64,000 bases of DNA from Clavibacter zhangzhiyongii (lineage in GTDB: Bacteria; Actinomycetota; Actinomycetes; Actinomycetales; Microbacteriaceae), in assembly GCF_014775655.1 (NCBI RefSeq), contig NZ_CP061274.1, forward strand, positions 930,001 to 994,000. The letters run 5' to 3'. This document shows, in pieces, positions 31,967 through 55,295 of this stretch. The stretch's first letter is position 1, and every line of letters starts with the position of its first letter. The notes under the pieces were generated by a model. The model was not told where the DNA came from. It searched no databases and worked only from the letters and a program-made list of their open reading frames with translations. A program made the position numbers and the translations under genes.

Positions 31967-32482
31967 GTGAATCCCGACACCCCTGCACTCGTCGGCCTGG
32001 TCATGGGCTCCGACTCCGACTGGAACGTGATGGAGAAGGCGTCCCTCGCGCTCGACGCCCTCGGCATCGCCCACGAGGTCGAGGTGCTCTCCGCGCATCG
32101 GACGCCCGAGCGGATGATCGCGTACGGCCAGTCCGCGCGCGAGCGCGGGATCCGCGTCATCGTCGCCGGCGCCGGCGGCGCCGCGCACCTGCCGGGCATG
32201 CTCGCGTCGGTCACGACCCTCCCCGTCATCGGCGTGCCCGTGCCGCTGGCGACCCTCGACGGCATGGACTCCCTGCTGTCCATCGTGCAGATGCCCGCGG
32301 GCGTGCCCGTCGCCACCGTCTCCATCGGCGGGGCCGAGAACGCCGGGCTCCTCGCCGCGCGGATCCTCTCGACCTCCGACGCGCGCATCGCGGACGCGCT
32401 GGCGCGCCATCGCGCCGAGCTGGCCGAGCTGGTGGAGCGGAAGAACGCCGCCCTGCAGCAGAAGGTCTCGTCGGGCGCGTGA
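31967..32482 (+). CDS. purE: N5-carboxyaminoimidazole ribonucleotide mutase
   Basis: Class I PurE of 171 residues; it isomerises the PurK product to CAIR. It has GLVMGSDSDWNVMEKA with the active-site Ser/Asp loop, VLSAHRTPERM with the catalytic His, and VAGAGGAAHLPGMLA. The start is the GTG that fits the leaderless -10; an ATG three codons upstream is the alternative. It ends with a GTGA overlap into the LCP gene, linking purine synthesis to a cell-wall ligase only by position. Confidence 0.95.
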   Translation: MNPDTPALVGLVMGSDSDWNVMEKASLALDALGIAHEVEVLSAHRTPERMIAYGQSARERGIRVIVAGAGGAAHLPGMLASVTTLPVIGVPVPLATLDGMDSLLSIVQMPAGVPVATVSIGGAENAGLLAARILSTSDARIADALARHRAELAELVERKNAALQQKVSSGA

Positions 32483-33828
32483 GCCTCACCCAGCCCATCC
32501 GGCACCCGGACAGCCGGTCGCCCCGGATCATGACCACCCGGGCCTGGTGGCTCGTGGTGCTCAACGTCCTCATCCCCGGATCCGCCCAGGTCCTCGCGGG
32601 GAACCGCCGCCTCGGCCGCGTGGGCCTCGCCTCGACGCTCGTCGTGTGGGGCCTCGCCGTCGTGGTCGGCGGCCTCGCGCTCTTCGCGCGCGGCGCGCTG
32701 ATCCAGCTGGTCTCGGAGGAGTGGCTGCTCGTGCTCCTCCAGGCGGTGCTCGCGGCCTACGCCGTGCTCTGGGTCGTGCTCGCGCTCGACACGCTGCGGC
32801 TCGCGCGCATCATCCGCGTCGCGCCGCGCGCCCGCGCCGTGATCGCGGCGCTGTCGGTGCTGCTCATGGTCGGCACCGCCGGATCCGCGGGCTACGCCGC
32901 GTACATCGTCGGCGTCGGCCGCGGCGCCCTCGGCGGGATCTTCGGCGACTACGCCACCGAGGCCCCCGTCGACGGCCGCTACAACATCATGCTGCTGGGC
33001 GGCGACGCGGGCAGCGACCGCGCCGGCCTCCGCCCCGACAGCATCACCGTCGTGAGCATCGACGCCGACACCGGGCACGCCACCATGGTCGGCCTCCCGC
33101 GTGACATGGAGAAGGTGCCGTTCTCCGACGGCTCGCCGCTCCAGGCGCGCTACCCGAAGGGCTACCAGCGCTGCGACGTGGACGCCTGCATGCTCAACTC
33201 CATCTACACGGAGGTGGAGGTCTACAAGCAGGACCTCTACCCGGATGCCGAGGAGAAGGGCAGCCTGCCCGGCATCGAGGCGATGCGCGAGGCGGTGGAG
33301 GGCGTCACCGGGCTCACCGTCCAGTACTACGCGCTCATCGACATGCAGGGGTTCTCCGACATGGTCGACGCGCTCGGCGGCATCGACATCGACGTGAAGC
33401 GCCGCATCGGCATGGGCTCGGGGCACGACGAGAAGTTCCGGCCGGTGCCGATCCCCGAGTGGATCGAGCCGGGCCAGCAGAAGCTCGACGGCTACCACGC
33501 GCTCTGGTACGCGCGCTCCCGCTACCAGACGACGGACTACGACCGCATGGCGCGCCAGCGCGAGGTGCAGCAGGCTGTGGTGCAGCAGTTCGACCCGGCC
33601 AACGTGCTCACCAAGTTCGACGCGATCGCCGAGGCCGGCCAGCAGGTCGTCAAGACGGACATCCCGCGCGGGATGCTCGGCTACTTCACGCAGCTCGCGC
33701 TGAAGACCAAGGACCAGCCCATCGACGACCTCGAGATCGTGCCGCCGCGCTTCGACTCGCAGAAGCCCGACTTCCCGGCGATCCGCCAGGCCATCCAGCA
33801 GCAGTTCGCCGCCGGCTCCGCGGGCTGA
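32479..33828 (+). CDS. LytR-CpsA-Psr (LCP) family cell-wall glycopolymer ligase
   Basis: 449 residues with several membrane helices in the first 150 (about four) and the extracytoplasmic LCP domain thereafter. Family residues include MLLGGDAGSDRAGLRPDSITVVSI, TMVGLPRDMEKVP and WYARSRYQTTDYDRMARQREVQ, the Arg/Asp residues that bind polyprenyl pyrophosphate. It transfers lipid-linked glycopolymers to peptidoglycan; in mycobacteria the homologue (CpsA1/Lcp1) attaches arabinogalactan. Here it stands at the edge of the galactan/arabinan gene block. It starts with GTG overlapping purE; an internal ATG 17 codons later is possible. Confidence 0.9.
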   Translation: MSLTQPIRHPDSRSPRIMTTRAWWLVVLNVLIPGSAQVLAGNRRLGRVGLASTLVVWGLAVVVGGLALFARGALIQLVSEEWLLVLLQAVLAAYAVLWVVLALDTLRLARIIRVAPRARAVIAALSVLLMVGTAGSAGYAAYIVGVGRGALGGIFGDYATEAPVDGRYNIMLLGGDAGSDRAGLRPDSITVVSIDADTGHATMVGLPRDMEKVPFSDGSPLQARYPKGYQRCDVDACMLNSIYTEVEVYKQDLYPDAEEKGSLPGIEAMREAVEGVTGLTVQYYALIDMQGFSDMVDALGGIDIDVKRRIGMGSGHDEKFRPVPIPEWIEPGQQKLDGYHALWYARSRYQTTDYDRMARQREVQQAVVQQFDPANVLTKFDAIAEAGQQVVKTDIPRGMLGYFTQLALKTKDQPIDDLEIVPPRFDSQKPDFPAIRQAIQQQFAAGSAG

Positions 33829-33843
33829 CCCGGCACGGGCCCG

Positions 33844-54234: not shown

Positions 54235-54276
54235 GGCGGGCGCTGCGGCAGACGACCGCGACCGCGGGCGCCCGCC
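54235..54276. terminator. Hairpin between convergent GT4 and UbiA-type genes
   Basis: GGCGGGCGC (54235-54243) pairs with GCGCCCGCC (54268-54276); the 24-nt loop makes it weaker than the other convergent terminators in the window. Confidence 0.5.
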
Positions 54277-54287
54277 TGGGGTCGGGA

Positions 54288-55295
54288 TCAGAACGTGCTG
54301 GGCTGGACGTACAGGCCGATGACCAGGATCACGAGCCAGACGCCCGCGAGCACCTGGAGCATGCGGTCGCCGAGGGCGATCTCCTCCGGGGCCTGCGCGT
54401 CGCCGCGGTCGATGTGCTGGCCGTAGCGCAGCACCGCGAGCACGAACGGCGCCACCGAGACGGAGAGCCAGAGGTTCCGCAGGTCGGTGAAGAGCTCGAA
54501 GGCCCACAGGCTGTAGCCGAGGATGAGGATCGTCGCGGCGGAGTGCCAGATGAAGCCGAGGTAGCCGAGCGTGTAGCCCTTGAGGGACCCGCGCACGTCG
54601 CCCTGCAGGTCGGGGTTGCTGGCGAGCTCCCCGTAGCGCTTGCCCGAGACCATGAGGAGCGACCCGAAGACCGCGACGAGCAGGAACCACTGGCTGAGCA
54701 CGACGCCGGTGGCCGCGCCGCCCGCGATGGCGCGCAGCAGGAAGCCGGAGGAGACGACGGCGATGTCGAGGATGGTGATGTGCTTCAGCCAGATGCAGTA
54801 CGCGATCTGCACGAGCTCGTAGCAGAGCACCACGGCCGCGAGCTCGAGGCCGCCGGCGAAGGCGACGGCGAGGCCGCCGAGGAGGAGCACGGCGGCGACC
54901 GCCACGGCGACGGGCACGGGCACGATGCCGGCGGCGATGGGGCGCGAGCGCTTGCGGGGGTGCGCGCGATCGGCCTCGACGTCGAGGATGTCGTTCAGGA
55001 AGTAGATGCCGGACGCGGCGAGGCAGAAGGCGACGAACGCGAGCACGGCCTTCACGAGCGACGGCTCGAAGAGCGCGCCGGCGGCGACGGGTGCGGCGAA
55101 CACCAGCACGTTCTTCATCCACTGGCGGACCCGTGCGGTGCGGATGACCCCGCCGAGGACGGAGGAGCTGCTGCCGGCGGGCGTGCGGGGGACGAGGTCT
55201 GGTTCGCTGATGGTGGTCCTCCTGGTCGGGCGATCAGAGTCACCGTAGCCGGTCGGCGCGCCCGACGCCGAACCGGCGGGCGGGCCCGGGGACAT
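54288..55295 (-). CDS. ubiA: Decaprenyl-phosphate phosphoribosyltransferase (UbiA superfamily)
   Basis: Transfers phosphoribose from PRPP to decaprenyl phosphate, first step towards decaprenyl-phosphoryl-arabinose. The core has RTARVRQWMKNVLVFA, GIYFLNDILDVEADRAHPRKRSRPIAAG (Asp-rich motif 1), YCIWLKHITILDIAVVSSGFLLRAIAGG, KRYGEL and about nine membrane helices, typical of DPPR synthase (Rv3806c, about 300 residues). The boundaries use ATG 55295, giving 335 residues. However, AGGAGG (55223-55218) lies exactly 6 nt upstream of an in-frame ATC codon at 55211, which would give a normal-sized 308-residue protein; no ATG, GTG or TTG lies between it and the conserved core. Confidence 0.87.
   Translation of the reverse strand: MSPGPPAGSASGAPTGYGDSDRPTRRTTISEPDLVPRTPAGSSSSVLGGVIRTARVRQWMKNVLVFAAPVAAGALFEPSLVKAVLAFVAFCLAASGIYFLNDILDVEADRAHPRKRSRPIAAGIVPVPVAVAVAAVLLLGGLAVAFAGGLELAAVVLCYELVQIAYCIWLKHITILDIAVVSSGFLLRAIAGGAATGVVLSQWFLLVAVFGSLLMVSGKRYGELASNPDLQGDVRGSLKGYTLGYLGFIWHSAATILILGYSLWAFELFTDLRNLWLSVSVAPFVLAVLRYGQHIDRGDAQAPEEIALGDRMLQVLAGVWLVILVIGLYVQPSTF

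What the first reader, a model, noticed from the sequence alone, without database searches (positions are those of the whole stretch)
32479..55295. Arabinogalactan-like biosynthesis locus in a presumed non-mycolate actinobacterium
LCP, Wzm/Wzt, rmlABCD, GtrA, GlfT1-like, Glf, GlfT2, Emb-like and UbiA-type genes lie together in 23 kb. Each motif is visible. In Mycobacteriales this set builds arabinogalactan, to which mycolic acids attach. If this is a Microbacteriaceae genome, which lacks mycolic acids, the locus implies a galactofuran/arabinan-like wall polymer with another role, possibly the anchor for the LGFP protein. DprE1/DprE2, the phosphatase step and a WbbL-type rhamnosyltransferase are not identified here, so the pathway may be completed elsewhere or end differently.
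Basis: partly seen in the sequence, partly recalled or inferred. Interest (0 to 1): 0.75.

Follow-up and report, generated by a model that had tools for sequence, protein, structure and literature searches.

The report
Wall galactan locus with Emb cassette
A plant-associated bacterium outside the mycobacteria carries genes to build a galactofuranose wall polymer and a swappable five-gene set that probably hangs ribose, not arabinose, on it, which suggests that relatives of the tuberculosis-drug target Emb may do a different job in other bacteria.

Summary
In detail: LCP, Wzm/Wzt, RmlABCD, GtrA, GlfT1-like, Glf, GlfT2, LGFP, Emb and a UbiA-type decaprenyl-phosphate phosphoribosyltransferase lie in 23 kb. 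The genus is Clavibacter (Microbacteriaceae). 'Arabinogalactan-like' is only partly right. Galactofuran synthesis, ABC export and LCP attachment are supported by homology. The side-chain sugar is probably not arabinose: profile searches find no DprE1 or DprE2 (polyprenyl-P-ribose to polyprenyl-P-arabinose) in this genome, nor DprE1 in 16 of 23 searched named genomes carrying the same Emb clade. Emb sits in a recurring cassette with a MOP-fold flippase, a GT4 and UbiA, plus, in Microbacteriaceae, a second copy of a histidine phosphatase. This resembles the 'three-component' pathway of Citrobacter (PMC11127046), which adds ribofuranose when no epimerase is present. Among ten Clavibacter genomes three have all five genes and seven have none at the locus; one of the seven, read in detail, has a Gtr-like module there, and the block's tree conflicts with a flank, as in a serotype locus. 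Best reading: wall galactofuran with exchangeable side chains, here predicted D-ribofuranose. Product chemistry is untested.

The parts
32479..33828 (+). LCP-family glycopolymer transferase (predicted attachment of the polymer to peptidoglycan)
   Evidence: PF03816 96 bits; TIGR00350 85.5 vs cut-off 62.3
33844..35028 (-). GT4 glycosyltransferase a
   Evidence: PF13692 85 bits
35078..35824 (-). Wzt-type ABC exporter ATPase
   Evidence: PF00005 79 bits; NF050108 galactan export 165 bits (cut-off 400), TagH 170 bits (cut-off 320), both under cut-off
35808..36668 (-). Wzm-type ABC exporter permease
   Evidence: PF01061 74 bits; best NCBIfam match NF050109 galactan export permease, 61 bits, cut-off 380
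36773..37627 (-). RmlD
   Evidence: PF04321 316 bits
37624..38610 (-). RmlB
   Evidence: PF16363 265 bits
38612..39289 (+). GtrA-family membrane protein; present in both Clavibacter haplotypes
   Evidence: PF04138 50 bits
39311..39916 (+). RmlC
   Evidence: named from the translation and synteny; no family scan
39920..40792 (+). RmlA
   Evidence: named from the translation and synteny; no family scan
40921..41898 (+). GT2 a, GlfT1-like
   Evidence: NF050113 gal_furan_GlfT1 78 bits, below its cut-off 330
41895..42740 (+). GT2 b (specificity unknown; a rhamnosyltransferase is possible)
   Evidence: PF00535 66 bits
42808..43980 (+). Glf, UDP-galactopyranose mutase
   Evidence: TIGR00031 351 vs cut-off 304
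43983..46001 (+). GlfT2-type galactofuran polymerase
   Evidence: PF19320, PF17994; PDB GlfT2 4fix E 4e-129
46161..48080 (+). protein with six LGFP repeats, read as secreted; in Clavibacter the repeats go with the Emb haplotype
   Evidence: PF08310 206 bits, 6 stretches; counterparts in seven Emb-negative genomes match only the N-terminal ~277 residues; the one scanned, in G551, has no Pfam match
48412..51618 (-). Emb-type GT-C (Emb family; CAZy number GT53 recalled), predicted pentofuranosyltransferase, in a clade apart from the mycobacterial and corynebacterial Emb rows
   Evidence: PF04602 222 bits; solved Emb structures, full-length chains E 7e-42 to 6e-50; tree
51675..53111 (+). MOP-superfamily fold; candidate flippase for polyprenyl-P-pentofuranose
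   Evidence: AlphaFold model pLDDT 85.3; Foldseek best E 1.7e-7 (MATE), 7.6e-6 (MurJ), 2.7e-5 (WzxE), rmsd about 6-10 A
53108..54220 (+). GT4 glycosyltransferase b, frequent partner of this Emb clade, role unknown
   Evidence: PF00534 87 bits; found in 22 of 29 loci with window-like Emb and 0 of 51 other Emb loci
54288..55361 (-). UbiA-family polyprenyl-phosphate phosphoribosyltransferase (DPPR synthase)
   Evidence: NF008978 390 vs cut-off 207; PDB 8j8j E 3e-76
55364..56011 (+). histidine phosphatase, cassette-linked second copy; candidate 5'-phosphatase
   Evidence: PF00300 95 bits; second copy in 3 of 3 UbiA-positive and 0 of 7 UbiA-negative Clavibacter

Best explanation
The locus makes a peptidoglycan-linked galactofuran that is decorated outside the membrane with a pentofuranose, most likely D-ribofuranose. 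(1, inferred by homology) A WecA-type enzyme, RmlABCD and GT2/GT4 enzymes build a lipid-linked linker; Glf supplies UDP-galactofuranose; the GlfT1-like enzyme and GlfT2 build the galactofuran; Wzm/Wzt export it; LCP links it to peptidoglycan. (2, inferred) UbiA transfers phosphoribose from PRPP to polyprenyl phosphate; the cassette's histidine phosphatase removes the 5'-phosphate; the MOP-fold protein flips polyprenyl-P-ribose to the outside. (3, inferred) Emb transfers the pentofuranose to the galactofuran. (4, absence shown by profile search) No DprE1 or DprE2 is found, so the donor should stay ribose. (5, shown by comparison) At this locus in Clavibacter the five genes Emb, flippase, GT4b, UbiA and HisP occur together or not at all, and the other haplotype carries a Gtr-like module where it was read, so the side chain behaves like a serotype. 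The role of GT4b is not explained.
For: Family and PDB matches of the steps. Two PF00953 (WecA/MraY family) proteins in the genome. DprE1 profile: 745 and 651 bits in G078 and G064, at most 61 bits in the other 13 of 15 genomes. DprE2 profile: 387 and 386 bits in the same two, at most 71 in seven Microbacteriaceae carriers. Of 35 named genomes, DprE1 is missing in 16 of 23 whose Emb falls in this clade and present in 12 of 12 whose Emb rows in our loci fall outside it; DprE2 is missing in 15 of those 16. All 7 strong-Emb genomes of 398 in the family have UbiA over the cut-off, which 28 of 398 have (chance 4e-9, not corrected for kinship). At the Clavibacter locus 3 of 10 genomes have all five genes and 7 of 10 none. 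Among 29 loci with window-like Emb (L061-L086, L095, L123, L134) tblastn finds GT4b in 22, the flippase in 20 and UbiA in 16; among the 51 other Emb loci GT4b and the flippase in none. Flippase fold. Precedent: PMC11127046 (abstract, two result sections, discussion part 1 and passages seen). Published sugars: Lentzea ribose and galactose (PMC12300779, passages); G. [quoted passage not shown]
Against: No wall chemistry of this organism was found. Ribose in whole-cell hydrolysates can come from RNA. The G. [quoted passage not shown] it is about the type strain, while our locus (L067) is from strain DSM 43161. Two of four new Herbiconiux species list glucose alone (PMC10011130). Pseudonocardia, Actinomycetospora and related genomes (7 of 7 searched) carry the same Emb clade together with DprE1 and share its signature at 13 of 14 marked positions, so the clade itself does not dictate ribose. 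UbiA passes its cut-off in 21 of 398 family genomes without a strong Emb. HisP is linked to UbiA only in Microbacteriaceae; two Quadrisphaera-type genomes and G078 have just the housekeeping-type copy. The GtrA protein of the locus is a rival flippase, although both haplotypes have it. An unrelated epimerase elsewhere in the genome cannot be excluded. Flippase and GT4b were not searched genome-wide in the Emb-negative Clavibacter. GT4b is unexplained and could mean that the flippase carries a larger lipid-linked glycan.
Confidence: 0.6

Rival explanations
1. A true arabinogalactan: another, unrecognised enzyme pair epimerises polyprenyl-P-ribose to arabinose, and Emb builds an arabinan as in mycobacteria.
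For: Emb and UbiA are strong homologues of the arabinan pathway; Pseudonocardia with DprE1 carry the same clade; Quadrisphaera-type genomes carry a 209-217-bit DprE2-like SDR.
Against: DprE1 and DprE2 not found; no epimerase among the five cassette genes; the weak FAD-domain hit in the own genome also occurs in the two cassette-less Clavibacter searched, G427 and G551; a DprE2-like SDR of 222-254 bits occurs as a second copy beside true DprE2 in eight other genomes, so the Quadrisphaera one looks like a paralogue; the passage on G. obscurus names no arabinose (PMC3035280).
Confidence: 0.22
2. Emb acts on a lipoglycan (lipomannan-like) and not on the galactofuran; GT4b and the flippase make that acceptor.
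For: GT4b has distant PDB matches that include the phosphatidylinositol mannosyltransferase PimA (E 2e-6; best match 3e-12 to Tll1590); by tblastn no window galactan gene lies within about 10 kb of the cassette in the Saccharothrix, Lentzea and Umezawaea loci.
Against: In Clavibacter the Emb haplotype includes diverged GT2a, GT2b, Glf and GlfT2 (68-88% identity to the other haplotype, against 90-99% in the flanking genes compared), as if backbone and side chain are inherited together.
Confidence: 0.12
3. The five-gene cassette is decaying or silent and the wall carries plain galactofuran.
For: The cassette is rare: 7 of 398 family genomes with a strong Emb; Emb is split in G739 and G523.
Against: Intact Emb frames in three Clavibacter, Herbiconiux and G520; catalytic DDGY and KWTHHFG motifs kept.
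Confidence: 0.06

Closest known systems
Mycobacterial/corynebacterial arabinogalactan synthesis (GlfT1/GlfT2, UbiA Rv3806c, DprE1/DprE2, EmbCAB)
   Same: Glf, GlfT2, Wzm/Wzt, LCP, DPPR synthase and an Emb-family GT-C with DDGY and KWTHHFG motifs
   Different: no DprE1/DprE2 found; a single Emb of another clade (one search finds one match in the genome); a MOP-fold protein and a GT4 in the cassette; a histidine phosphatase instead of Rv3807c, which I recall as PAP2-type; not a mycolate lineage (recalled)
Three-component pentofuranose systems (Citrobacter youngae O1/O2, PMC11127046)
   Same: UbiA-family phosphoribosyltransferase, a dedicated flippase candidate and a GT-C clustered together; ribofuranose is the default sugar when no epimerase is present
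   Different: GT-C is of the Emb family, not GT136; phosphatase candidate is a separate histidine phosphatase, not a fused HAD domain; flippase candidate is a full-length MOP-fold protein, theirs is described as MATE with four helices; predicted acceptor is a wall galactofuran, not an O antigen
Gtr side-chain modules (GtrA/GtrB/GT-C) of O antigens
   Same: side-chain addition outside the membrane and swapping at a polymer locus; a Gtr-like set occupies the same place in the other Clavibacter haplotype (read in G551)
   Different: that set is the alternative allele, not the one in this window

Membership tests
Emb (EmbA/B/C) arabinosyltransferases | sequence homology over all three Emb domains | tested here: met
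   PF17689, PF04602, PF14896 all over cut-off
Emb (EmbA/B/C) arabinosyltransferases | grouping with the mycobacterial and corynebacterial Emb rows | tested here: not met
   window Emb in a separate 29-row clade, SH-aLRT 100 (quick tree, 71 of 105 rows used, midpoint root)
Emb (EmbA/B/C) arabinosyltransferases | catalytic DDGY and KWTHHFG motifs (roles recalled) | tested here: met
   D303, D304, H603, H604 conserved in at least 90% of each of three groups
Emb (EmbA/B/C) arabinosyltransferases | transfers D-arabinofuranose | not testable with these tools
   needs biochemistry
Arabinogalactan pathway | Glf and GlfT2-type galactofuran synthesis | tested here: met
Arabinogalactan pathway | DPPR synthase | tested here: met
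Arabinogalactan pathway | DprE1 and DprE2 (arabinose donor) | tested here: not met
Arabinogalactan pathway | AftA/AftB/AftC/AftD | not tested
Arabinogalactan pathway | mycolic acids attached | not tested
   only the lineage (Clavibacter) speaks against it
Three-component pentofuranose system | UbiA-family polyprenyl-P phosphoribosyltransferase | tested here: met
Three-component pentofuranose system | dedicated flippase in the cluster | tested here: inconclusive
   a MOP fold is present; that it flips this lipid is untested
Three-component pentofuranose system | GT-C glycosyltransferase in the cluster | tested here: met
   Emb; another GT-C family than GT136
Three-component pentofuranose system | phosphoribose phosphatase | tested here: inconclusive
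   HisP linked in Microbacteriaceae only

The most novel reading that the evidence does not exclude
A whole clade of Emb proteins, spread over Microbacteriaceae, Quadrisphaera, Geodermatophilaceae and Lentzea/Saccharothrix-type Pseudonocardiales, are D-ribofuranosyltransferases that decorate wall polymers from polyprenyl-P-ribose delivered by a dedicated MOP flippase; arabinose use through DprE1/DprE2 would then be a separate specialisation, and Clavibacter species switch this side chain like a serotype.
Probability: 0.45. Interest if true: 0.8.

Novelty: new variant of a known kind. Interest (0 to 1): 0.62.

Why it matters
Emb enzymes are known as arabinosyltransferases and as the target of ethambutol. 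If this clade uses ribose, the family's donor range is wider than thought, and how ribose and arabinose walls relate can be traced in living lineages. The cassette also names testable candidates for two poorly settled steps: who removes the 5'-phosphate and who flips the lipid donor. And it points to a serotype-like swap of wall polymer side chains within one plant-associated genus.

Tried and rejected
DprE1 candidate from the ALO domain: the gene at 2237686 (L034) is an alditol-oxidase-like protein by eye and only 21-31% identical to the DprE1-type proteins it matches; rejected. The best DprE1-profile hit in the own genome (57 bits, 2189870) covers only the N-terminal FAD-binding part and recurs in the two cassette-less Clavibacter searched; rejected. 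G614, the eighth 'Emb' genome (49 bits; its UbiA match, E 3.7e-4, is under the family cut-off), has no match to the window Emb within the 16 kb fetched; left out of the count of strong hits. Pocket signature as a mark of donor choice: rejected, since DprE1-positive Pseudonocardia share it at 13 of 14 positions. HisP as the universal phosphatase: not supported outside Microbacteriaceae. Literature: the listings show no title on an Emb gene in Clavibacter, Geodermatophilus, Lentzea or Saccharothrix; several listings were capped, this is the open PMC library only, and most subscription papers are missing. (Actinosynnema mirum, not tested as a carrier): galactose and mannose are given as wall sugars. 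(third protein) and 97 added nothing on the Gtr-like membrane protein or on GT4b. A second structure job and the pdb_via comparison were not used.
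Full report
WHAT IS THERE. From left to right: LCP; on the minus strand a GT4, Wzt, Wzm, RmlD, RmlB; on the plus strand GtrA, RmlC, RmlA, two GT2 genes, Glf, GlfT2 and a protein with six LGFP repeats; on the minus strand Emb; on the plus strand a membrane protein and a second GT4; on the minus strand UbiA; on the plus strand a histidine phosphatase. Emb matches all three Emb domains of Pfam and the solved EmbA, EmbB and EmbC structures. UbiA passes the curated cut-off for decaprenyl-phosphate phosphoribosyltransferase and its nearest solved structure is that enzyme (8j8j). 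GlfT2 is equally clear. The GlfT1-like, Wzt and Wzm genes stay under the NCBIfam cut-offs, so their assignments are looser.

WHOSE GENOME. A single 3.10-Mb contig. The nearest Emb in the named collection is Clavibacter lycopersici at 92% (L061, best 80 of 560 relatives kept), and ten genomes of the own genus are listed in the family sample. I take the genus to be Clavibacter; the species was not determined.

RARE AND PATCHY. PF04602 is found in 11 of 396 genomes sampled from the order and in 8 of 398 from the family, one of them weak. In the genus it is in 3 of 10. The phosphoribosyltransferase passes its cut-off in 28 of 398 family genomes, among them all 7 with a strong Emb (chance 4e-9 if genomes were independent, which they are not). 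So 21 genomes have the UbiA enzyme without a strong Emb.

AN ALL-OR-NONE CASSETTE. I fetched about 40 kb around the locus in nine other Clavibacter genomes. The two Emb-positive ones have Emb, flippase, GT4b, UbiA and HisP in the same order as the window. In the seven Emb-negative ones tblastn finds none of the five in the fetched stretch, although LCP, Wzm/Wzt, Rml, Glf and GlfT2 are all there. Genome-wide, these seven also show no Emb, no UbiA match at E 0.001 and no second HisP; flippase and GT4b were not searched genome-wide. In one of them, G551, which I read gene by gene, the place holds two GT2 genes, two large membrane proteins without a Pfam match that look like GT-C enzymes to me, an epimerase and a second GtrA: a Gtr-like module. 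A second GtrA homologue is seen in all seven. Identity to the window drops from 90-99% in the flanking genes compared to 68-88% in GT2a, GT2b, Glf and GlfT2. The tree of these four genes puts the window with the two other Emb-positive genomes (SH-aLRT 100), while the right flank puts it with Emb-negative G551 (97); the left flank leaves the window unresolved. The block has therefore probably moved between species, as serotype loci do. LGFP repeats go with the Emb haplotype: the seven Emb-negative genomes match only the first ~277 residues of that protein and the G551 protein has no Pfam match.

BEYOND THE GENUS. Of the 80 named Emb loci, 29 have a window-like Emb (L061-L086, L095, L123, L134; six of them, L061, L074, L083, L085, L123 and L134, were placed by identity and are not in the tree). 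Among these 29, tblastn finds GT4b in 22, the flippase in 20 and UbiA in 16. Four of the seven without GT4b are contigs of about 8 kb or less; the other three (L075, L079, L083) are from Actinomycetospora, a Pseudonocardiaceae MAG and a Pseudonocardia MAG. In the two Modestobacter loci and in the Pseudonocardia and Actinomycetospora loci no UbiA lies in the fetched stretch. Among the 51 other Emb loci GT4b and the flippase are found in none. In the Saccharothrix, Lentzea and Umezawaea loci no window galactan gene is found near the four genes.

THE MEMBRANE PROTEIN HAS A FLIPPASE FOLD. It has no Pfam or NCBIfam match and no convincing PDB sequence match. An AlphaFold model from 19 homologues (pLDDT 85.3, pTM 0.84) matches MATE transporters, MurJ and WzxE (best Foldseek E 1.7e-7, 7.6e-6 and 2.7e-5; query TM 0.50-0.66 and rmsd about 6-10 A in the 50 listed). 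So it is a MOP-superfamily protein; what it flips is inferred from its neighbours. The GtrA protein of the locus is a rival, but both haplotypes carry it.

NO ROUTE TO ARABINOSE FOUND. I built profiles of DprE1 and DprE2 from eight sequences each. DprE1: 745 and 651 bits in G078 and G064, which are in the same order; the other 13 of 15 genomes, the own one included, reach at most 61 bits. DprE2: 387 and 386 bits in the same two; 209-217 in four Quadrisphaera-type genomes; at most 71 in seven Microbacteriaceae. In 35 named genomes DprE1 is missing in 16: Herbiconiux, seven Geodermatophilaceae, Saccharothrix, five Lentzea, Umezawaea and Quadrisphaera. It is present in 19: seven Pseudonocardia, Actinomycetospora or related genomes that carry the same Emb clade, and 12 whose Emb rows in our loci fall outside it. 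At E 1e-30, DprE2 is missing in 15 of the 16; the exception is the Quadrisphaera SDR. SDRs of a similar score (222-254 bits) occur as a second copy next to true DprE2 in eight other genomes, so it is probably a paralogue. One of the 16 is a 2.9-Mb MAG (L063) that may be incomplete, so its absence counts for less.

THE EMB CLADE. In a quick IQ-TREE of 71 of 105 rows the window Emb sits in a 29-row clade with SH-aLRT 100 (midpoint root). It holds the Microbacteriaceae, Quadrisphaera-type, Geodermatophilaceae and Lentzea/Saccharothrix/Umezawaea rows and a Pseudonocardia/Actinomycetospora group. The DDGY and KWTHHFG motifs are kept in all three groups compared. Fourteen positions differ in majority letter between 21 rows from DprE1-less genomes (at least 85% agreement) and 24 rows from outside the clade (at least 80%), among them Phe331 where the others have Glu. 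The Glu may be the ethambutol-related E327 of M. tuberculosis EmbB; E327 is named in PMC9887390 (passage), the correspondence is my own inference. The eight Pseudonocardia/Actinomycetospora-group rows share the majority letter at 13 of the 14, so the signature marks the clade and not the donor.

THE PHOSPHATASE. The cassette phosphatase keeps the residues I recall as catalytic in histidine phosphatases (RHGE, a later Arg, Glu and His). All ten Clavibacter have a housekeeping copy at 283-291 bits; in the own genome it precedes genes that I read as ccdA, resB and ccsB. The three UbiA-positive ones have a second copy at 384-388 bits, the seven others do not. It is a good candidate for the 5'-phosphatase in Microbacteriaceae, but the two Quadrisphaera-type genomes and G078 have only the housekeeping-type copy.

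PRECEDENT. Kelly et al. 2024 (PMC11127046; abstract, result sections on ORF15 and ORF13, part 1 of the discussion and passages seen; supplements not seen) describe a UbiA-type enzyme, a MATE-family flippase and a GT-C that add ribofuranose to an O antigen. Extra enzymes change the sugar: an SDR for xylose, DprE1/DprE2 homologues for arabinose. The words GT53 and Actinobacteria do not occur in its main text.

CHEMISTRY IN PRINT. Lentzea: ribose and galactose in whole cells (PMC12300779; passages); galactose, mannose and ribose for Lechevalieria and Lentzea (PMC6113628; passage). G. [quoted passage not shown] passage); our locus is from another strain under that name. These fit the lack of arabinose and allow ribose, but are weak, because RNA also yields ribose. 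The passages on Herbiconiux (PMC10011130) give glucose only for two of four new species, glucose, rhamnose and ribose for H. oxytropis, and do not show the wall sugars of the fourth; none of the four was tested here for the cassette.

VERDICT. The best-supported reading is a wall galactofuran with an exchangeable, extracytoplasmic pentofuranose side chain, predicted ribofuranose. My own estimates: a galactofuran is made, about 0.85; a pentofuranose is added, about 0.8; it is ribose rather than arabinose, about 0.65.

Noticed in passing
L170 (G480), L171 (G697), L172 (G417): Emb-negative Microbacteriaceae with the UbiA enzyme have an RmlB/SDR-like gene close beside UbiA, together with flippase and GT4b homologues; this resembles the Citrobacter xylofuranose epimerase arrangement.
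   Followed up: no
L169 (G687): A cluster with HisP, UbiA, the flippase, Glf and GlfT2 but no Emb; a membrane protein that looks like an acyltransferase by eye lies beside Glf. Which GT-C it uses is unknown.
   Followed up: partly
G739 (L049/L050) and G523 (L051/L052): Emb and several neighbours appear split, as by frameshifts: assembly errors or decay.
   Followed up: no
G115, G007, G087, G101 (Quadrisphaera-type): A DprE2-like SDR of 209-217 bits lies about 14-26 kb from Emb, with no DprE1 above 50 bits.
   Followed up: partly
window 56077-57366 and about 57415-58700: Two tandem polytopic membrane proteins that look like O-antigen ligase/polymerase relatives by eye; in relatives the second is about 30% identical to the first; no Pfam match for the first.
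   Followed up: no
G000 497729-498367 (L189): Housekeeping copy of the histidine phosphatase in front of cytochrome c biogenesis-like genes; a copy of this type is in all ten Clavibacter genomes searched (neighbours read only in the own genome).
   Followed up: yes
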